DNA of 64,000 bases from Bdellovibrio sp. NC01 (lineage in GTDB: Bacteria > Bdellovibrionota > Bdellovibrionia > Bdellovibrionales > Bdellovibrionaceae). Shown here piece by piece: positions 32,898-41,254 of this stretch (the first letter of the stretch is position 1; each line of letters opens with the position of its first letter). The notes below the pieces were generated by a model. The model was not told where the DNA came from and searched no databases. It saw only the letters and a program-made list of their open reading frames with translations. The stretch is from the NCBI RefSeq assembly GCF_006874625.1, contig NZ_CP030034.1, forward strand, positions 868,001 through 932,000. Reading direction: 5' to 3'. Made by a program: the position numbers and the translations under genes.

Positions 32898-32923
32898 TTT
32901 TGTATAGTATTATCTATACAAAA
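32898..32923. promoter_or_regulatory. palindromic operator upstream of the lipocalin pair
   Basis: TTTTGTATAG and CTATACAAAA form a perfect 10-bp inverted repeat around TATTAT, 52 bases before the first lipocalin ATG. The same half-sites with the same six-base spacing recur at 34973-34996 next to the MerR regulator gene, so this is the likely site for that regulator. Confidence 0.8.
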
Positions 32924-32975
32924 GCGCAAATGGCATAATAGAGTGCCTTATCAAATGTAAAGACGGGAAAATTTC

Positions 32976-33494
32976 ATGAAAAAATTAGTTTCGTCCTTGG
33001 CCCTAATTCTATTTTTTGGTTTTGCAACGGCCCATGCCGCGGATCGCACGGACCCTGAAGTCGTTTCGACGGTTGATTTCGCAAAGTATGCGGGTATGTG
33101 GTATGAGATCGCTCATGCACCAAACTTCTTTCAGCGTGGTTGTGTACGCTCGACAGCTGAATACGCCGTTCAGTCTGCGGTTTCAGTTTCCGTGAAGAAC
33201 ACTTGCTACAAAGCAAATGGCTCAAAGAGCGATATCACGGGTGAAGCAAAGGTCGTGGACTCGGCTGTGCCAGCAAAACTTAAGGTTCGTTTCAACTTTT
33301 TTGCTCGCGGTGATTATTGGATCGTGGATTTGGATCCGGACTATCAGTGGTCCGTTGTCAGTGGGCCAAATAAGAAGTCACTGTTTATCCTGTCCCGCCA
33401 GGCTCCGATGGATGAACAGATCTTAAATTCAATCATCGTCAGACTGAAGCAACGCGGTTTCAATGTTGATGACCTTATTTATGACCAGTATTGA
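32976..33494 (+). CDS. periplasmic lipocalin (Blc-like)
   Basis: A 172-residue secreted lipocalin. A signal peptide (MKKLVSSLALILFFGFATAHA) is followed by the lipocalin signature (KYAGMWYEIAHAPNFFQRGC) and the later structurally conserved DYWIVDLDPDYQWSVVSGP and LFILSRQAPM. Bacterial Blc-type proteins bind fatty acids or lysolipids. There is no lipobox, so it should be soluble in the periplasm. It is the first gene behind the palindromic operator and is followed three bases later by a second lipocalin. Confidence 0.88.
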   Translation: MKKLVSSLALILFFGFATAHAADRTDPEVVSTVDFAKYAGMWYEIAHAPNFFQRGCVRSTAEYAVQSAVSVSVKNTCYKANGSKSDITGEAKVVDSAVPAKLKVRFNFFARGDYWIVDLDPDYQWSVVSGPNKKSLFILSRQAPMDEQILNSIIVRLKQRGFNVDDLIYDQY

Positions 33495-33497
33495 TCA

Positions 33498-34025
33498 ATG
33501 AAAATCATCGTTGTTATTGGCACTCTAATTTTGCTGGGAGGATGTGGAACGATGTCTTCGACAAAACCACTACCAACGGTTTCCCATGTCGACATTTCCA
33601 GATTCATGGGAGATTGGTACGTCGTTGCAAATATCCCAACCTTCGTTGAAAAGGGCGCCACAAACGCGATCGAATCATACTCGTGGAATGAAAAAGAAAA
33701 TCGGATCGACGTTGATTTTCGCTTTAATGCCGACACGCCGAAAGGTCCTGTAAAGCGCTATCCTCAAAAAGCTTGGATCTATGACAAGAATACAAATGCT
33801 GAATGGAGAGTGCAGCCTTGGTGGCCTCTTAAGTTTTCGTATCTTATCATAGATCTGGCACCTGATTATTCGTACACGGTGATCGGGGTTCCAAGTCGTA
33901 ACTACGTATGGATAATGGCGCGAAAGCCAGTGATGGATTCCGCGCTTTTTGCAGAGGTTGTTTCTAAGGTGCAGTCTTTTGGTTACGACACTTCAAAAAT
34001 ACAAAAGGTGCCGCAAATTTGGTAA
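33498..34025 (+). CDS. lipocalin lipoprotein (Blc-like)
   Basis: A 175-residue lipocalin with lipobox LGGC (lipidated Cys at residue 16), so membrane anchored. The lipocalin motif is RFMGDWYVVANIPTFVEKG, with later YLIIDLAPDYSYTVIGVPS and VWIMARKPVMD. It is a divergent paralogue of the soluble lipocalin just upstream, giving a soluble plus anchored pair. Probably lipid binding or transfer at the envelope, in line with the lipid-modifying operon across the regulator gene. Confidence 0.88.
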   Translation: MKIIVVIGTLILLGGCGTMSSTKPLPTVSHVDISRFMGDWYVVANIPTFVEKGATNAIESYSWNEKENRIDVDFRFNADTPKGPVKRYPQKAWIYDKNTNAEWRVQPWWPLKFSYLIIDLAPDYSYTVIGVPSRNYVWIMARKPVMDSALFAEVVSKVQSFGYDTSKIQKVPQIW

Positions 34026-34026
34026 T

Positions 34027-34944
34027 TCAGGTTAGGTCTTTCAAATAACTTTGAAATTCACTCATAGAGGAGAAAATCACGACATCACGTTTTAAATTCA
34101 ATTTTAGCTGAGCAGTATTTCTTCCAGCCAGAAGAAATACGATCTGCGAAGGCAGGTTTCTGTCCAAGAAGTTAATGTAACTAAAAAGACTTTCCTTCGC
34201 GCCTTCATTTTCTGACACCGTGCTTGAGATTAAAAGATGAGTGGCATCGTAGCGGAGGCACGTTTCACTCAGGTCTTTTTTCGGGGTGCTTGGTCCTAGA
34301 TATAATGTTTTTAAGCCTTCAATTCGGCTTAAGCTTGAAGCGAAAGAGATTCCTAAATCGTGTAAATCTCCTTCTGGCGTGGTCATAACCAAGCGTGATT
34401 TCGCTTTAGTTTTTTTGCTTTCCTTTTGTACGAGAATTAATTGTTCTTTGATAAATGCAGATAAAATGTGTTCTTGCCCGACAGTAAGCTGTCCGTGTGC
34501 TACCTGTTGGCCGATCTGGCCAGCAAGTGGGGTAAGGAGGTTGGCAATAAACATATCCGGTTTTAAGTCGCGTCTCTTTTTATGAAGAAGATCCGCAACT
34601 TCATCCCATTTAAACAGGTGGGCAAGATCCAAGATTTTATATATGGACTCGACATGTTTGTTGGCGGGAGCGGCAGTTGCATTAGCGGTTTCTTGTTGTG
34701 GAAGGATTTTTTCTAAATCCGCTAAGTTGAGCTTGGCAATATTGCCGATCTTGTAGCCCTTGTCGATAAGGGCCTGTAATAAACGAGCCTTTTCGATGTC
34801 TTGACGAGAATAGAGTCTTCGTCCCGTTTCACTGCGCTTTGGTTTGAAAGCTTTATAACGTGTTTCCCAGCCGCGCAATGTAAACTCGGAAATCCCAGTA
34901 AGCTCAATAACTTGTCTAATCGAAAACGATTCATTTTTGGTCAT
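34027..34944 (-). CDS. MerR-family regulator of CarH/LitR type (B12-binding)
   Basis: A 305-residue regulator. Residues 1-75 are a MerR winged helix (YSIRQV-like start, LRGWETRYKAFKPKR, GRRLYSRQDIEKARLL). Residues about 95-215 match the cobalamin-binding part of CarH/LitR: the Glu-His pair in LTVGQEHILSAF (E158, H159), the lower-ligand His195 in EGDLHDLG, and LYLGPSTPKKDL. The cap Trp expected in the GEAW-type motif is Val148 here. CarH/LitR proteins repress in the dark with adenosylcobalamin and release DNA in light. It lies between two palindromic sites and probably controls the lipocalins, the lipid operon and itself. The start has a weak ribosome site. Confidence 0.85.
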   Translation of the reverse strand: MTKNESFSIRQVIELTGISEFTLRGWETRYKAFKPKRSETGRRLYSRQDIEKARLLQALIDKGYKIGNIAKLNLADLEKILPQQETANATAAPANKHVESIYKILDLAHLFKWDEVADLLHKKRRDLKPDMFIANLLTPLAGQIGQQVAHGQLTVGQEHILSAFIKEQLILVQKESKKTKAKSRLVMTTPEGDLHDLGISFASSLSRIEGLKTLYLGPSTPKKDLSETCLRYDATHLLISSTVSENEGAKESLFSYINFLDRNLPSQIVFLLAGRNTAQLKLNLKRDVVIFSSMSEFQSYLKDLT

Positions 34945-34972
34945 CTAGTCTGATTGTACATCCTTCGCTATA

Positions 34973-34996
34973 TTTGTATAGAAAAAACTATACAAA
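34973..34996. promoter_or_regulatory. palindromic operator between merR and the lipid operon
   Basis: TTTGTATAG and CTATACAAA are perfect inverse complements around AAAAAA, in the divergent region 28 bases before the MerR ATG and 39 bases before the FAD gene GTG. The half-sites and spacing match the site at 32898-32923 exactly. Confidence 0.82.
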
Positions 34997-35035
34997 AATG
35001 AGAGAATAAGACATATCGCGTAGGTGAGGTGTCAA

Positions 35036-36292
35036 GTGAAGACAGCGGTAATCGGTGCAGGTATTAGCGGCTTGGGAGCGGCTTGGATTTTGAGTCAAGC
35101 TGACGAGGTACATCTTTTTGAGTCAGAAAGCCGTTTAGGTGGACACGCTCACACCGTGCACGTTAACGAAGGGGCTTCGAGTATTCCGGTAGATACCGGT
35201 TTTCTAGTCTATAATGAGCTGACATATCCGCACCTAACACGTTTTTTCAAAACCCTAAATGTCGACACAGTCGAATCTGACATGTCGTTAGCGATCAATG
35301 CACGTCACAAAAATTTGGAATGGGCAGGTACGAACCTCGATACGGTTTTTGCGCAACGGACAAATATTCTTCGTCCGGGTTTTCTGCGAATGCTATACGA
35401 GATCACGCGTTTTCATCGTGAGGCAGAGGCTAACAAGGAACTTGCTCATAAAAATAACTGGAGTCTTGGTCAATTGATTAAGGCGCGCGCGTACAGCGAT
35501 GGCTTTAAGCGTGACTATCTTTTACCGATTGGCGCCGCCATTTGGTCGACTCCGGAGCGAGGCATGGAGGATTTTCCTGCCGAAACATTTTTGACGTTTT
35601 TTATTAATCATCGTCTTTTACAAATTAATGATCGCCCCATTTGGAGAACAGTTAAGGGCGGATCGATCGAGTACGTAAAAAAAGTCAGCCAACGAATTCC
35701 TTTCCTGCATTTGAATTCTCCAGTTCAAAATGTCGAAAGGCGCGCTGGAAAAGTTCTAGTTCGTACGGCTGGTGAATGTTTGGAGTTCGACCGAGTCGTT
35801 TTTGCGACCCATGCGCCAGTGACTTTGCGAATTTTAGAAAACGCCACGGAGCTAGAGCGAAGAGTTCTTGGCGGAATTAAAACCGCGGGCAATAAAACCT
35901 ATTTGCATAAAGACAGTTCATTCATGCCTTCTCGTAAGAAGTGCTGGTCTTCCTGGAACGTGGTGGGTTCTCCAGACAGTCAAAGTCATGAAAATGTCTC
36001 TTTGACGTACTTCATCAACAAACTGCAACCACTTCCAACTGACCAAAATTTTTTCGTCACATTGAACCCGCGTTCGCCGATACAAGATGTGTTGCGTGAA
36101 TTTACTTATGAACATCCACAATTCGACCGTACTGCCATTGAAGCGCAGAAATCGTTAGCCACAATACAAGGCCAAGGTGGGATTTATTTTGCGGGTGCTT
36201 GGACAAGATATGGCTTTCACGAAGATGGACTGTTGAGTGCTGTTCGAGTTGGTGAGCTTTTAGGAATGAAAGCTCCGTGGGAGGTCTCATGA
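35036..36292 (+). CDS. FAD-dependent amine-oxidase-like oxidoreductase
   Basis: A 418-residue flavoprotein with the dinucleotide motif AVIGAGISGLGAAWIL at the extreme N terminus, ESRLGGHAHTV, and the C-terminal FAD motif IYFAGAWTRYGFHEDGLLSA. GTG 35036 is chosen for its GAGGTG site; GTG 35024 would precede it. The same protein accompanies DUF1365, a cyclopropane-synthase homologue and DUF1295 in light- or singlet-oxygen-responsive clusters of other Proteobacteria. Its reaction is not established; it probably acts on an unsaturated or modified acyl chain. First gene of the operon. Confidence 0.85.
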   Translation: MKTAVIGAGISGLGAAWILSQADEVHLFESESRLGGHAHTVHVNEGASSIPVDTGFLVYNELTYPHLTRFFKTLNVDTVESDMSLAINARHKNLEWAGTNLDTVFAQRTNILRPGFLRMLYEITRFHREAEANKELAHKNNWSLGQLIKARAYSDGFKRDYLLPIGAAIWSTPERGMEDFPAETFLTFFINHRLLQINDRPIWRTVKGGSIEYVKKVSQRIPFLHLNSPVQNVERRAGKVLVRTAGECLEFDRVVFATHAPVTLRILENATELERRVLGGIKTAGNKTYLHKDSSFMPSRKKCWSSWNVVGSPDSQSHENVSLTYFINKLQPLPTDQNFFVTLNPRSPIQDVLREFTYEHPQFDRTAIEAQKSLATIQGQGGIYFAGAWTRYGFHEDGLLSAVRVGELLGMKAPWEVS

Positions 36293-37035
36293 GCTCGTTG
36301 CAGATCCTAAAAGGACATGTGTATCACAGTCGGAATCACGAAGTGCGACACTCTTTTAGGTATCCCACTTTTGCATTGCTATTTTCCCTGAAATCAGAGG
36401 ATGAATTTTTACGTATTCTAAAGCGTAAAACCGCAGGTCTGTTGTCTTTAAAGCCACGTGATTATTTGCACGGACATCGAGATTCTTTACAGAACTCGAT
36501 AAGCCGTTTTTTAAAAGAGCAATGCCACTACGATGCGGAAGAAGTTGTGCTGCAGACTTATCCTCGGATGCTAGGCTTCGCCTTCAATCCGGTCAGTTTC
36601 TGGTTTTGCTCCCGAGCAGGGAAGCTTGAAGCCGTCTTATGTGAAGTAAATAACACTTTCGGTGAGCGGCACTTTTATTGGATTCACCCTCCTGAGGGAA
36701 TTCAGAAGTCGCAGTTTTATCGCTCGGATAAAGTTTTTCATGTAAGCCCCTTTTTTCCGGTCGATGGGTTTTACAAATTTCGCTTTCATTATGATGAGCT
36801 TCATAGACGAGTGGATATTCACTATTTTGATAGCAACGAACAATTGCGTTTTACGTCTTGGATCGAAGGGCGCGTTTCTGATTTTGAAACTGAATCGGTG
36901 GCGCGTTTATTTTTGTCCTATGGATGGATGACACTTTTGGTGGTGATTCGCATTCATTGGCAGGCATTAAGACTTTGGCTGAAGCGAGTCACTTTTTATA
37001 GGAAGCCCGCACCCCCGCGCGAGGAGGTCACATGA
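36289..37035 (+). CDS. DUF1365 family protein
   Basis: About 248 residues from ATG 36289 (GGGAGG site upstream; a GTG at 36277 is less likely). The start LKGHVYHSRNHEVRHSFRYP and the central YPRMLGFAFNPVSFWFC are hallmark DUF1365 motifs. No function has been shown, but it is a steady neighbour of the FAD oxidoreductase and CFA-synthase-like genes. Its ATG overlaps the upstream stop (ATGA), and its own stop overlaps the next ATG. Confidence 0.88.
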   Translation: MSSLQILKGHVYHSRNHEVRHSFRYPTFALLFSLKSEDEFLRILKRKTAGLLSLKPRDYLHGHRDSLQNSISRFLKEQCHYDAEEVVLQTYPRMLGFAFNPVSFWFCSRAGKLEAVLCEVNNTFGERHFYWIHPPEGIQKSQFYRSDKVFHVSPFFPVDGFYKFRFHYDELHRRVDIHYFDSNEQLRFTSWIEGRVSDFETESVARLFLSYGWMTLLVVIRIHWQALRLWLKRVTFYRKPAPPREEVT

Positions 37036-38204
37036 GTTCGCTGACATTGAAAACAAAAATTCTAATTAAGCTTTTGCAGAAATCAAAAGGGGCCACGCTT
37101 CATGTTACTTTTCCCGATGGATCGGTGGATTCATTCGGATCGGGCTCAGCTCAGATCGCAATTCAGGCCAAAAGCTGGAAGGTTTTTGATGAGCTTGTGG
37201 ATAAAGGTGATCTTGGAATGGCAGAGGCGGTGATTCGCGGGGATCTTTTGGTGGATGACATTTCGGCATTGGTGCAGTGGGCCTGTGCAAACGAAGATTC
37301 CATGAACCGTCTTTTGCATGGAGCTTGGTATGGAACATTCTTGGCGCGCTTACGACATCTGATGAAGCCAAACACCAAAGATGGTGCCAAGAAAAATATC
37401 ATGGCCCATTACGATCTTGGTAACAGTTTTTATCGCCTGTGGCTTGATCCAAGTATGACGTATTCTGCGGGATTGTTTGAGACTGATTTGGAAAGTCTTC
37501 ATGAAGCACAGATGAAAAAGTATGACCGAATTATCGACGCGCTTAACATTTCCGCGAACGATCATATTCTAGAAATTGGTTGTGGGTGGGGAGGCTTTTT
37601 TAGTCGGGCCGTCGAGCGCACAGGTTGTCGTGTCACTGCGGTTATGAATTCGCCGTCACAAGCTCAGTATAATCGCGAGCTCATTGCGAAATCAGGATTC
37701 AAAAACTATGTTGAACTGAAGCAGCAAGACTACCGGGAAATTGAAGGACGTTTTGATAAAATCGTATCCATCGAAATGGTTGAAGCGGTTGGCGAGAAGT
37801 ATTGGCCTGAATTCTTTGGTAAAGTCAGCAGCTCTTTGAAAAACAAAGGTGCAGCGCTTGTTCAGTCGATCACCATTCAAGATCAATACTTTGACCAATA
37901 CCGAAGCAAGACCGATTTTATTCAACGTTATGTATTTCCCGGCGGTATGCTTCTGGCGCCCAAAGTGTTTGCTGCTTACGCAAGCCGATTTGATCTTAAA
38001 GATGAAAAGCCCTTCGAGTTTGGAATTTCATACGCCGACACATTATTGAAATGGAATCAAAACTTTCAGGCGGCCGAAAAAGACGTTCGTCATCTTGGAT
38101 TCGATGACAAGTTCATGCGTCTTTGGAATTTATATCTGACTTATTGTGAAGGTGCATTTCGGGCTGAGCGTATAAACGTTGGCCATTATCTTCTGCAAAA
38201 ATAG
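37032..38204 (+). CDS. cfa: cyclopropane-fatty-acid synthase family methyltransferase
   Basis: A 390-residue SAM enzyme. It has an N-terminal lipid-binding region, then the family motifs HYDLGNSFYRLWLDPSMTYS, the SAM loop LEIGCGWGGFF, KIVSIEMVEAVG and QRYVFPGGMLL. CFA synthases add a methylene from SAM to unsaturated phospholipid acyl chains at the inner membrane. Here it could make cyclopropane or another methylated fatty acid. A GGAGG site precedes the ATG, which overlaps the DUF1365 stop. Confidence 0.9.
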   Translation: MSSLTLKTKILIKLLQKSKGATLHVTFPDGSVDSFGSGSAQIAIQAKSWKVFDELVDKGDLGMAEAVIRGDLLVDDISALVQWACANEDSMNRLLHGAWYGTFLARLRHLMKPNTKDGAKKNIMAHYDLGNSFYRLWLDPSMTYSAGLFETDLESLHEAQMKKYDRIIDALNISANDHILEIGCGWGGFFSRAVERTGCRVTAVMNSPSQAQYNRELIAKSGFKNYVELKQQDYREIEGRFDKIVSIEMVEAVGEKYWPEFFGKVSSSLKNKGAALVQSITIQDQYFDQYRSKTDFIQRYVFPGGMLLAPKVFAAYASRFDLKDEKPFEFGISYADTLLKWNQNFQAAEKDVRHLGFDDKFMRLWNLYLTYCEGAFRAERINVGHYLLQK

Positions 38205-38215
38205 AAGGGAAAGTT

Positions 38216-39271
38216 ATGGCGTTGGGATTTTTTATAGACTTAATGGAGCGCGGGCTGATTCCAGAAAATCTTGTTCGCGCGGGCATTCGCAAGCTTTGTC
38301 GCGAACGACTGAAAAGTCTTGCCGTTGTTGATCGAGAAATTGAACAAGAGCGAAATTCTGCTTACGTGAAGGACCTTAAAAAATCCGCGATCGCGTTCGC
38401 GACAGAAAAAGCAAATCAGCAACACTATGAGCTTCCAGCTAGTTTTTATAAATTGGTTCTAGGCAAACGGAAAAAATACAGTTCAGGATATTGGCATGCT
38501 GGATGTGAAAATCTTGACGATGCCGAAGAAGCCGCATTGGAAATGACTTTTGCACGAGCTGAAGTCATCGACGGTATGAGAATCCTAGATATGGGCTGCG
38601 GTTGGGGCTCCGTTTCGCTAAAGTTAGCTGAACAATTTCCCAAATCTCAAATCGTGGGAATTTCTAATTCCCATTCGCAACGTCAGTACATTCTAGATCA
38701 AGCAGCCCAACGAGGCCTTCAGAATGTCACGATCTTGACGGGCGACATCAGCACGTTTGCGGCCCCCGAAGATTGGTTCAATGGTTTTGATCGCGTTATC
38801 AGTGTGGAAATGTTGGAACATGTACGAAATTATGAAAAATTGTTTGAACAAGTCAGTCGCTGGTTGAAGAGCGACGGAAAGTTTTTCGTTCATATCTTTA
38901 CCCACAGTCGATATGCATATCCGTTTGAAACAGAGGGCGACGATAACTGGATGGGAAAATATTTTTTTACCGGCGGGCAAATGCCAAGTCATCACTTGTT
39001 GTCCTATTTCCAAAAAGATCTGTTCTTAGAGCAACAGTGGAGCTGGCGCGGTACGCACTATCAGAAAACATCAGAGGCGTGGCTTCAGAACATGGATAAC
39101 AACCGTGAGATTATTTTGGCAATTTTCCGCGAAGTCTATGGAGCCGAGGAAGCCGAAAGATGGTTTGAGCGTTGGAGAGTGTTCTTTATGTCCTGTGCCG
39201 AGCTATTTGGTTTCAATGAAGGCCGCGAGTGGGGAGTTTCTCATTACCTATTTAAGAACAGACAACGCTAA
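38216..39271 (+). CDS. CFA-synthase-like SAM methyltransferase, second type
   Basis: A 351-residue SAM methyltransferase that shares HYELPASFYKLVLG and the SAM loop LDMGCGWGSVSLKLAE with CFA synthases, but has a different C-terminal half (MGKYFFTGGQMPSHHLL, WRVFFMSCAELFGF). This form is a usual second methyltransferase of the light/singlet-oxygen lipid cluster. Its product is unknown; relatives of this cluster have been linked to methylated or furan fatty acids. It starts 12 bases after the first enzyme. Confidence 0.85.
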   Translation: MALGFFIDLMERGLIPENLVRAGIRKLCRERLKSLAVVDREIEQERNSAYVKDLKKSAIAFATEKANQQHYELPASFYKLVLGKRKKYSSGYWHAGCENLDDAEEAALEMTFARAEVIDGMRILDMGCGWGSVSLKLAEQFPKSQIVGISNSHSQRQYILDQAAQRGLQNVTILTGDISTFAAPEDWFNGFDRVISVEMLEHVRNYEKLFEQVSRWLKSDGKFFVHIFTHSRYAYPFETEGDDNWMGKYFFTGGQMPSHHLLSYFQKDLFLEQQWSWRGTHYQKTSEAWLQNMDNNREIILAIFREVYGAEEAERWFERWRVFFMSCAELFGFNEGREWGVSHYLFKNRQR

Positions 39272-39279
39272 GAGGAGTT

Positions 39280-40074
39280 ATGGATCAGTTTTGGATGCAA
39301 GTTCTTGGCGCGTTTGTAGTGATGGTGTTGTTAATGACACTGACATGGCGATTTGCCAAGCGGTGGAACAACTATAGTATCGTGGATGTTATCTGGCCAC
39401 TTTCGTTTTCTGTGGTGGGCGGTCTTTATTATTTGACGAGTGAAGGATGGTGGTTAAGAAAAGCGCTCGTTTTAGCTGTCGTAATGCTCTGGAGTCTTCG
39501 TCTTTCATTCTTTCTTGGCAGAAGAGTATACTCTCACCATCCGGCTGAGGATTCCCGTTATAAGACTTTACGTCAGGATTACGGGACAAATCTTGTATGG
39601 CGCTTTTTTCTTTTCTTTCAATACCAGGGCATCAGTGTCGTTCTTTTAAGTATTGTATTCTTGATGCCGCTAAGAAACAGTGCTGAAAATCTAAATGGGT
39701 TAGAGATTGCGGGGCTGTTGTTGAGCCTGCTTTCTTTATTCGGAGAAAGCATAGCAGATGCGCAGGCTCAAAAGTTCAAAACAAATCCAGCGAATCATTC
39801 TAAGGTTTGTGATGTGGGACTGTGGAAGTACTCCCGTCATCCAAACTATTTTTTTGAAAGTATGATTTGGTGGGGATTTTATGTGACGGCTCTAGGCACG
39901 CCCGGTGGGGCATATACTGTCTATGCACCGTTGATCATTTTATTTATTTTGGTAAAGGTCACAGGCATTCCTCCGTCAGAAACTCAAGCCTTACAAAAAA
40001 GAGGAGACGCTTACCGTGAATATCAATCACGAACCTCTGCTTTCGTTCCGTGGTTTCCCAAGAAGGGGAAATAA
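39280..40074 (+). CDS. DUF1295 membrane protein (steroid 5-alpha-reductase-like)
   Basis: A 264-residue inner membrane protein with several hydrophobic segments. The motifs NNYSIVDVIWPLSF, DSRYKTLRQDYG and KYSRHPNYFFESMIWWGFY are typical of DUF1295, a distant relative of steroid 5-alpha-reductases. Such proteins probably reduce double bonds in lipids with NADPH, which fits its place next to two acyl-chain methyltransferases. A GAGGAG site precedes the ATG. Confidence 0.87.
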   Translation: MDQFWMQVLGAFVVMVLLMTLTWRFAKRWNNYSIVDVIWPLSFSVVGGLYYLTSEGWWLRKALVLAVVMLWSLRLSFFLGRRVYSHHPAEDSRYKTLRQDYGTNLVWRFFLFFQYQGISVVLLSIVFLMPLRNSAENLNGLEIAGLLLSLLSLFGESIADAQAQKFKTNPANHSKVCDVGLWKYSRHPNYFFESMIWWGFYVTALGTPGGAYTVYAPLIILFILVKVTGIPPSETQALQKRGDAYREYQSRTSAFVPWFPKKGK

Positions 40075-40076
40075 AC

Positions 40077-40544
40077 ATGTGGTGGCGAAAAATTTTTGAT
40101 AGAGCAAAGAGTTTTATAATCGAGCAGCTGAAACAAGGTGCGACGGCGGAAGGATTAGCTCTGACCTGTTCTGTCGGATTTGCCTTAGCGCTTTTTCCGG
40201 CTCTTGGGACGACGACGGCTCTTTGTCTTGTCGTGGGAACGGTGATGAAGTTAAATCAGCCAACCCTTCAAGCGGTGAATTATTTATTGGCACCGGTTCA
40301 ACTTCTTTTGATTCCCGTATTTTTAAAATTAGGTGCGTGGATTTTTTCGGTGCCAGCCGTTTCAATTAATCCAAAGACGGTGATCGCTGAATTTTTTGAG
40401 GCCCCAGGATTATTCTTTGTAAATTATGGTCTTGCCGGATTAATGGCGATGATTGCCTGGCTGGTGGTCATGCCGGCTTTGTCGTTTCTTGTTTATCGAA
40501 TCTTGAAAGTGTTATTCAAAAATCTTTGTAAGGTGAAAGAGTGA
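40077..40544 (+). CDS. DUF2062 membrane protein
   Basis: A 155-residue protein with an amphipathic start (MWWRKIFDRAKSFIIEQL), a DUF2062 signature (SVGFALALFPALGTTTALCL) and three to four membrane segments. ATG 40077 is chosen for its AGGGG site; an upstream GTG at 40050 would overlap the DUF1295 gene. Function unknown; it is sixth in the lipid operon and its stop overlaps the next ATG. Confidence 0.8.
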   Translation: MWWRKIFDRAKSFIIEQLKQGATAEGLALTCSVGFALALFPALGTTTALCLVVGTVMKLNQPTLQAVNYLLAPVQLLLIPVFLKLGAWIFSVPAVSINPKTVIAEFFEAPGLFFVNYGLAGLMAMIAWLVVMPALSFLVYRILKVLFKNLCKVKE

Positions 40545-41254
40545 TGAAATTTATCATTTTTCTGATTTCTTTTTTTCCGTTGCTTGTATGGGGTGAATCA
40601 CAAACCCGAATCTCAAAGATTTATGCAATTGGAAAGCTGCAAGAAGAACCTTTGTTTGTGCAAACAACCGAAGTTCAAACTCGGGGCTCTGGCAATTTCA
40701 CGTCGAATGCAAAGATAGAAGATGCGACGGGGAAAATATTGATGACCGAAAAAGTTGCCGTGGAAGGTGACTCTTTGGTCTCTCAATATGTTGAGCAGCT
40801 TCAGGCAAACGAAGCGTGGGAGTTAGCGGTTCAAAAAAATAATGCCGTCTTTAAAACGTTTAAGCTTTCGAAAAATGGACGTGAAGAGGTCAGTCAAAAA
40901 ACGCAAAAAGTGGGCTCTTTTATCAATGGCCCGCTGATCGAATCTTTCATTCAGAAAAACTGGCTTCAATTAATGGAGGGCAAAAATGTAAGCACGGCCT
41001 TCAGTGTTTTAGAACTCGAACGCACTGTGGATTTCAGGTTTGAGAAAATTAAAGACAGCGAACGAGCAGGCAAGCGGGTCGCGGTTATAAAAATGAAACC
41101 AGCGAACTTTTTTATCTCGATGCTGGTGGATCCGATTATACTTGAGTTTGATCTTGAAGCGAAAAAGCTGGTTTATTTTAAAGGTCGCACACCTTTGAAA
41201 ATGGAAAGCTCGGGACAATTAAAACCACTGGATGCCGAGATTCTTTATTATTGA
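40544..41254 (+). CDS. secreted protein of unknown function, last gene of the lipid operon
   Basis: A 236-residue protein with a signal peptide (MKFIIFLISFFPLLVWG). The rest is beta-rich with long alternating strands (LVSQYVEQLQANEAWELAV, SVLELERTVDFRFEKI), which suggests a lipid-binding or barrel-like periplasmic fold, but no family was recognised. The start overlaps the DUF2062 stop (TGATG), so it is translated with the operon. Confidence 0.75.
   Translation: MKFIIFLISFFPLLVWGESQTRISKIYAIGKLQEEPLFVQTTEVQTRGSGNFTSNAKIEDATGKILMTEKVAVEGDSLVSQYVEQLQANEAWELAVQKNNAVFKTFKLSKNGREEVSQKTQKVGSFINGPLIESFIQKNWLQLMEGKNVSTAFSVLELERTVDFRFEKIKDSERAGKRVAVIKMKPANFFISMLVDPIILEFDLEAKKLVYFKGRTPLKMESSGQLKPLDAEILYY

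What the first reader, a model, noticed from the sequence alone, without database searches (positions are those of the whole stretch)
32898..41254. Predicted B12/light-controlled lipid-remodelling regulon around a CarH/LitR-type regulator
A MerR regulator with CarH-like cobalamin residues sits between two lipocalin genes and a seven-gene operon (FAD oxidoreductase, DUF1365, two CFA-synthase-like methyltransferases, DUF1295, DUF2062, secreted protein). CarH/LitR proteins are known to repress in the dark with adenosylcobalamin; similar gene sets in other Proteobacteria are tied to light or singlet-oxygen responses and to modified (cyclopropane, methylated or furan) fatty acids. Two matching palindromes link both arms. 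The lipocalin pair on one side suggests transport of the modified or damaged acyl chains. That a predatory bacterium uses light this way is inference.
Basis: partly seen in the sequence, partly recalled or inferred. Interest (0 to 1): 0.78.

Follow-up and report, generated by a model that had tools for sequence, protein, structure and literature searches.

The report
Trp-less CarH-like regulator of furan-lipid genes
A predatory bacterium (Bdellovibrio) carries a light-protection gene set, probably making furan-containing membrane lipids, switched by a relative of the vitamin-B12 light sensor CarH that has kept its B12-binding residues but lost the two residues CarH uses to respond to light, so how it senses light is an open, testable question.

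Summary
Two perfect palindromes (TTGTATAG-N6-CTATACAA) at 32900-32921 and 34974-34995 flank a MerR gene and are the only copies, even allowing two mismatches, in the 3.98-Mb Bdellovibrio genome. The operator is conserved across the phylum: 22 exact sites in 369 genomes against 1 for the reversed-pattern control. Elsewhere the same regulator and operator sit on carotenoid operons, photolyases, FolE and lipocalins, so a photo-oxidative regulon is well supported by comparison, though never tested.

Two corrections. First, the regulator is not a canonical CarH: Trp131 is Val and His132 is Ala. All 37 clade members examined lack the Trp, while Glu141, His142 (36 of 37) and the cobalt-ligand His177 are kept; 35 of 35 regulators of the same operon in Proteobacteria keep the Trp. 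The defining Wx9EH motif is not met, so AdoCbl photolysis cannot be assumed. Second, the operon looks like the furan fatty acid pathway UfaD-UfaO-UfaM, not cyclopropane synthesis: the first "CFA synthase" lacks the active-site Cys and His.

Novelty: new variant of a known kind. The open question is the sensor: a reshaped cobalamin pocket, a CarA-like B12-independent repressor, or a partner such as the genome's single short BLUF protein.

The parts
32900..32921 (.). operator 1, perfect palindrome TTGTATAG-TATTAT-CTATACAA, upstream of the lipocalin pair
   Evidence: conserved upstream of the lipocalin pair in two relatives
32976..33494 (+). lipocalin 1 (Lipocalin_2, signal peptide-like N terminus)
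   Evidence: PF08212 E 1.1e-42
33498..34025 (+). lipocalin 2 (Lipocalin_2, lipoprotein-like N terminus)
   Evidence: PF08212 E 2.6e-33
34027..34944 (-). MerR-family regulator with CarH-type cobalamin-binding domain; V148/A149 in place of CarH W131/H132; E158, H159, H195 kept
34974..34995 (.). operator 2, perfect palindrome TTGTATAG-AAAAAA-CTATACAA, between merR and the operon; overlaps a merR promoter-like site (34980-34953, minus strand)
   Evidence: conserved in many relatives
35036..36292 (+). FAD-dependent oxidoreductase, candidate UfaD (acyl desaturase)
   Evidence: PF01593; position before DUF1365 conserved; PMC7380195
36289..37035 (+). DUF1365 protein, candidate UfaO
   Evidence: PF07103 E 1.3e-69; PMC7380195
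37032..38204 (+). CFA-like methyltransferase 1, candidate UfaM; lacks Cys139 and His266 of CFA synthases
38216..39271 (+). CFA-like methyltransferase 2, closest solved relatives are plant coclaurine/pavine N-methyltransferases
39280..40074 (+). DUF1295 membrane protein (steroid-reductase-like)
   Evidence: PF06966 E 6.9e-66
40077..40544 (+). DUF2062 membrane protein
   Evidence: PF09835 E 1.3e-06, just above the gathering score
40544..41254 (+). secreted protein of an unnamed family that recurs next to this regulator in other genomes
   Evidence: no Pfam or NCBIfam hit; iterative search, 21 ORF hits (fewer distinct proteins) in held loci

Best explanation
This is a photo-oxidative-stress regulon of two transcription units. 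The MerR protein, a CarH relative from a Trp-less clade seen so far only in Bdellovibrionota, binds the palindromes (each arm holds the CarH-type half-site TnnACA, here TATACA) and represses the lipocalin pair, the seven-gene lipid operon and probably itself. Light or photochemically produced oxidants relieve repression. The operon then converts unsaturated acyl chains of phospholipids into methylated furan fatty acids (UfaM methylates, UfaD desaturates, UfaO adds oxygen), which quench membrane oxidants; the lipocalins handle damaged or modified lipids. Shown here: gene content, operators, their conservation, target classes, the residue losses and the kept pocket residues. Inferred: repression, light or oxidant as signal, furan products, lipocalin role. 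Most likely the protein still binds a cobalamin through His195, but cannot switch by CarH's Trp131/His132 route.
For: Operators exact and unique in the genome. Within the order, 17 of 21 genomes with a close MerR (at least 165 bits) have the operator at up to 1 mismatch, against 3 of 120 others (Fisher p about 2e-15). Within the phylum, 22 exact sites against 1 for the reversed-pattern control. Targets in relatives: UfaD-UfaO-UfaM operons, carotenoid operons, photolyases, a photolyase-related protein (DPRP), GTP cyclohydrolase I, lipocalins, DUF3833. The P. putida/P. mendocina LitR regulon likewise holds phrB, ufaM and folE and is light-induced (PMC9758184). FAD, DUF1365 and CFA1-like genes occur together in 75 of 80 loci, with a MerR gene in 37. 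In those clusters the methyltransferase lacks Cys139, the His after Glu239 and His266 almost without exception, as here. In the sensor domain of 37 Trp-less proteins (mean identity 32%) only five columns are invariant, including Glu158 and His195. The predicted structure matches CarH (Z about 20 over 195 residues). The genome has a cobalamin adenosyltransferase and an AdoCbl-type mutase, so AdoCbl should exist in the cell.
Against: No expression, binding or lipid data. The genus is patchy for the system, and the genome's own photolyase lacks the operator. Myxococcus CarA also keeps EH and the B12 motif yet works without B12 (PMC9304148), so kept residues do not prove cobalamin binding. The Fisher test ignores shared ancestry of the genomes.
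Confidence: 0.6

Rival explanations
1. The regulator is a B12-independent repressor like Myxococcus CarA: the cobalamin pocket is a relic or structural, and light acts indirectly through singlet oxygen and an anti-repressor.
For: CarA lacks the Trp of Wx9EH but keeps EH and the D/ExHxxG motif, the state seen here in the 37 proteins examined (PMC9304148). The operator is an inverted repeat, fitting a dimer rather than the tandem repeats bound by CarH tetramers.
Against: Glu158 and His195 invariant in 37 proteins at 32% mean identity suggests the pocket is still used. CarS, CarF, CarQ and CarR homologues were not searched for.
Confidence: 0.3
2. The regulator is controlled by a separate blue-light receptor, the short BLUF protein encoded elsewhere in this genome, in the way E. 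coli BluF lifts BluR or Pseudomonas PmSB-LOV lifts the class II LitR PmlR2.
For: The genome has exactly one BLUF-domain protein, short and without an output domain. MerR-type repressors are known to be antagonised by BLUF or LOV partners (PMC3509220, PMC9758184). No LOV core motif NCRFLQ was found.
Against: The BLUF gene is not linked to the regulator in any held locus.
Confidence: 0.2
3. It is an ordinary CarH: AdoCbl-bound repressor in the dark, photolysed in the light, with Val tolerated at the Trp position.
For: Full CarH architecture, AdoCbl synthesis likely, regulon of the right kind.
Against: [quoted passage not shown]). H132A CarH stays largely tetrameric after light in one study, although an earlier report found disassembly (PMC10442372). 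The Trp is gone in the whole clade and His132 in all but one member.
Confidence: 0.12
4. A general envelope or oxidative-stress regulon that responds to a lipid or redox signal, unrelated to light.
For: Blc-type lipocalins and lipid-modifying enzymes may also serve envelope stress (general knowledge); one exact operator in another genome (G060) lies upstream of a grpE-like/dnaJ-like pair.
Against: Photolyase, photolyase-related, carotenoid and FolE targets in many relatives are hard to explain without light.
Confidence: 0.15

Closest known systems
CarH / class I LitR (Thermus, Bacillus, Myxococcus)
   Same: MerR DNA-binding domain with the R-x-W-E-x-R-Y core, four-helix bundle plus Rossmann B12 domain, Glu141, His142, His177; half-site TnnACA
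   Different: Trp131 and His132 lost; operator is an inverted repeat, not tandem direct repeats; targets are furan-lipid and lipocalin genes here (carotenoid genes in some relatives)
CarA of Myxococcus xanthus
   Same: Lacks the Trp, keeps EH and the B12 motif; regulates photoprotection
   Different: Phylogenetic relation and the CarS/CarF route not tested; different phylum
Class II LitR (PplR/PmlR) with short LOV partner, Pseudomonas
   Same: Regulon with photolyase, ufaM, FAD oxidoreductase, folE
   Different: Class II lacks the Rossmann B12 domain; no LOV core motif found in this genome; operator TGTACA-N12-TGTACA is spaced differently
R. sphaeroides / R. palustris UfaM-UfaD-UfaO furan fatty acid pathway (singlet-oxygen response, sigmaE-ChrR, in R. 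sphaeroides)
   Same: FAD desaturase, DUF1365 oxygenase and CFA-like methyltransferase; in R. palustris the locus numbers RPA2571-2570-2569 give the same order UfaD-UfaO-UfaM
   Different: Regulated by a MerR protein here, followed by a second methyltransferase, DUF1295, DUF2062 and a secreted protein
Vibrio cholerae MerR (VCA0056) blue-light response
   Same: MerR-type regulator and CFA-synthase-like gene in a blue-light response (PMC5241685)
   Different: Its B12 domain and target sites were not compared here

Membership tests
CarH (class I LitR) | MerR DNA-binding domain with R-x-W-E-R-R-Y-like recognition helix | tested here: met
   RGWETRY; W26, E27, R29 invariant in 37 proteins
CarH (class I LitR) | B12 motif D/ExHx2Gx41SxT/Vx22-27GG | tested here: met
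   DLHDLG, then S at exactly x41 followed by xT/V; but the final GG is AG and the last spacing is longer
CarH (class I LitR) | Wx9EH motif | tested here: not met
   Vx9EH in the window; V 32, S 2, I 2, A 1 of 37 clade members
CarH (class I LitR) | His132 for the light-state bis-His ligation (present in many, not all CarH) | tested here: not met
   Ala149 in the window, variable in the clade
CarH (class I LitR) | AdoCbl-dependent tetramer and DNA binding, reversed by light | not testable with these tools
   needs purified protein
CarH (class I LitR) | Operator of tandem 11-bp direct repeats with TnnACA | tested here: not met
   TnnACA (TATACA) is present in each arm but as an inverted repeat
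CarA (B12-independent) | Trp lost, EH and B12 motif kept | tested here: met
CarA (B12-independent) | CarS anti-repressor and CarF/CarQ/CarR pathway | not tested
Class II LitR | Only the four-helix bundle of the B12 region kept | tested here: not met
   Rossmann domain predicted with high confidence and aligned to CarH
Class II LitR | Short LOV partner | tested here: inconclusive
   no NCRFLQ-encoding stretch in the genome; a divergent LOV core is not excluded
UfaM-UfaD-UfaO furan fatty acid pathway | FAD desaturase + DUF1365 + CFA-like methyltransferase gene set | tested here: met
   at family level:
UfaM-UfaD-UfaO furan fatty acid pathway | Makes methylated furan fatty acids | not testable with these tools
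   needs lipid analysis
Cyclopropane fatty acid synthase (methyltransferase 1) | Active-site Cys139, Glu239, His266, Tyr317 (E. coli numbering; residue roles from general knowledge) | tested here: not met
   A, E, Q, Y in the window protein; same loss in the cluster homologues
BLUF-antagonised MerR (BluR type) | Cognate BLUF protein that binds the repressor | tested here: inconclusive
   one short BLUF protein in the genome, unlinked; binding not testable

The most novel reading that the evidence does not exclude
The Bdellovibrionota clade is a distinct class of CarH-derived photoprotection regulators that keeps the cobalamin pocket (Glu, His, lower-ligand His) but has dropped the Trp/His photoswitch. 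It would sense light or oxidants through a different upper ligand, a different cobalt redox step, or a BLUF partner, giving a predator phylum its own light-response system with a conserved palindromic operator.
Probability: 0.45. Interest if true: 0.78.

Novelty: new variant of a known kind. Interest (0 to 1): 0.6.

Why it matters
Among the papers I could search, no light-protection regulon had been defined in Bdellovibrio-type predators. The clade is also a natural experiment on CarH: it kept the B12 site and the job but lost the residues thought essential for the light switch. The 22-bp operator makes regulons predictable across the phylum, and the furan fatty acid assignment predicts a lipid class not yet looked for in these bacteria. 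The recurring secreted family and DUF3833 are new candidates for photo-oxidative protection.

Tried and rejected
Searching the operator at up to 3 mismatches genome-wide gave only chance-level extra sites (7 against 27 for the reversed control), so no wider regulon in this genome is claimed. The genome's own photolyase and BLUF loci were checked for the operator: none. Linkage of the BLUF gene to the regulator in held loci: none. The LOV core motif was sought: none. The idea that the adenosyltransferase exists only for the regulator was dropped because an AdoCbl-type mutase is present. A cyclopropane-synthase reading of methyltransferase 1 was rejected on residues. Methyltransferase 2 keeps His266 but is closest to plant N-methyltransferases, so its substrate is left open. 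NCBIfam's CarH equivalog model scores 104.6 against a cut-off of 400, so it does not support filing as CarH. Sites in G013 and G088 were set aside as likely chance (the G013 site lies inside what looks like coding sequence and recurs in G003; G088 has a poly-G centre), and G060 as unexplained. Papers on class III LitR and P. putida PplR (PMC6256028, PMC7515241) were not held.
Full report
**What is there.** The window is part of a complete 3.98-Mb genome. A genome placed in the same genus (G003) has an 11,017-base contig matching a record titled Bdellovibrio sp., so the window is from Bdellovibrio. Overlapping or nearly touching reading frames indicate one operon.

**The operators.** Both palindromes are exact TTGTATAG-N6-CTATACAA. 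In the genome there are only these two exact sites and none with one or two mismatches. In a set of 60 genomes (own and relatives), 10 that have a close MerR, the window's own included, carry the site at up to one mismatch. In 141 genomes of the order, 17 of 21 genomes with a MerR of at least 165 bits have the site against 3 of 120 others (Fisher p about 2e-15; shared ancestry is not corrected for). In 369 genomes of the phylum there are 22 exact sites in 18 genomes, against one for the reversed pattern. The spacer is almost always A/T only. Each arm holds TATACA, which fits the CarH half-site TnnACA (PMC9304148), but as an inverted repeat. Operator 2 overlaps a promoter-like site for merR, which suggests autoregulation; promoter-like matches in this region are hardly above chance overall, so this is weak.

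**What the operator sits on elsewhere.** Flanking genes were identified by similarity to window and relative proteins and, for many, by Pfam. Furan-type lipid operons: G000, G022, G011, G003, G035, G007, and at one mismatch G030 and G062. Carotenoid operons (polyprenyl synthase, phytoene desaturase-type, phytoene synthase): G014, G222, G231, and G077 at one mismatch. Photolyase: G137, G303 and the other side of the G231 site. Photolyase-related DPRP protein: G303 (second site), and G094 at one mismatch. GTP cyclohydrolase I: G120, G307, G315. Lipocalins, DUF2177 or DUF3833: G003 (second site), G046, G127, G347, and G136 at one mismatch. One exact site (G060) lies upstream of a grpE-like gene (identified by eye) and is unexplained. 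More distant Trp-less regulators without this operator lie next to a lycopene cyclase or a photolyase (L047, L053). Pseudomonas LitR regulons hold phrB, ufaM, folE and cryB and are light-induced (PMC9758184). A photo-oxidative role is therefore the best inference.

**The regulator.** It aligns with Thermus CarH/LitR over most of its length. The AlphaFold model (mean pLDDT 90.4) has CarH structures as top Foldseek hits and matches CarH-type cobalamin domains at Z about 20 over about 195 residues. The alignment shows Val148 for Trp131 and Ala149 for His132, with Glu158, His159 and His195 for Glu141, His142 and His177. Among 37 Trp-less proteins (mean pairwise identity 32%) the Trp position is V 32, S 2, I 2, A 1; Glu158 and His195 are invariant and His159 is kept in 36. 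The 29 Bdellovibrionales Trp-less proteins form one side of a branch (support 99/92), separate from six Trp-bearing Bdellovibrionales proteins and from 35 proteobacterial regulators, all Trp-bearing, found near the same lipid genes. The tree has some long branches, so deeper order is unsure.

**Why that matters for mechanism.** The literature states that Wx9EH is absolutely conserved in studied CarH proteins, that with the B12 motif it defines them, and that its absence in CarA largely accounts for B12-independence (PMC8156234; PMC9304148). His132 forms the light-state ligand, and in one study H132A CarH stays largely tetrameric after illumination (PMC10442372). The window protein lacks both. 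It fails the CarH membership test on a defining feature and shares the CarA state, yet the strong conservation of the cobalamin contacts argues that the pocket is used. AdoCbl should be available: the genome has a PduO-type adenosyltransferase and an IcmF-like mutase (B12-binding, MeaB and mutase domains).

**A possible partner.** The genome encodes exactly one BLUF protein, short and with no output domain, and no NCRFLQ LOV motif. BluF lifting BluR in E. coli (PMC3509220) and PmSB-LOV lifting PmlR2 (PMC9758184) are precedents for a flavin photoreceptor acting on a MerR-type repressor. The gene is unlinked, and co-occurrence could not be tested.

**The enzymes.** In R. sphaeroides, UfaM (CFA-like methyltransferase), UfaD (NAD/FAD-binding desaturase) and UfaO (DUF1365) make methylated furan fatty acids, and the R. 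palustris genes RPA2571, 2570 and 2569 encode UfaD, UfaO and UfaM (PMC7380195). A genome scan with DUF1365 found the FAD, DUF1365 and CFA1-like genes together in 75 of 80 loci, with a MerR gene in 37 and DUF3833 in 46; close adjacency in the order FAD-DUF1365-CFA1 was confirmed in 44. Methyltransferase 1 has A/E/A/Q/Y where solved CFA synthases have C/E/H/H/Y; 74 of 75 cluster homologues share the second A and the Q. This fits UfaM-type chemistry rather than ring closure, by inference. Methyltransferase 2 is nearest to plant coclaurine N-methyltransferase. The last gene belongs to a secreted family without a Pfam model that recurs beside this regulator or DUF3833 in other genomes.

**Verdict.** All functional steps remain to be tested at the bench.

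Noticed in passing
40544-41254; homologues L183:5350-6039, L044:6907-7590, L180:7594-8319, L193:1474-2193: A secreted protein family without Pfam or NCBIfam model recurs next to the Trp-less regulator, DUF3833 or lipocalins in many Bdellovibrionota.
   Followed up: partly
G000:C1:771334-771606 (L197): The genome's only BLUF blue-light sensor domain, in a short protein without an output domain, directly after a MaoC-like dehydratase-type gene (named by eye).
   Followed up: partly
G060:C4:63078-63099 (L172:6079): An exact copy of the operator lies upstream of a grpE-like/dnaJ-like pair in a genome (85% complete) where no close regulator was found.
   Followed up: no
L026, L027, L028, L029, L034, L035: A second, Trp-bearing CarH-like family exists in some Bdellovibrionales genomes (W followed mostly by E instead of H), not linked to lipid or carotenoid genes in the loci looked at.
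   Followed up: partly
38216-39271: Methyltransferase 2 is a bacterial homologue of plant coclaurine/pavine N-methyltransferases, sitting in a lipid operon; substrate unknown.
   Followed up: no
L188 (G231), 7276 and a second near-operator in the same stretch: One genome has the exact operator between a photolyase-bearing unit and a carotenoid operon, plus a second near-operator sequence in the same 14.5 kb.
   Followed up: no
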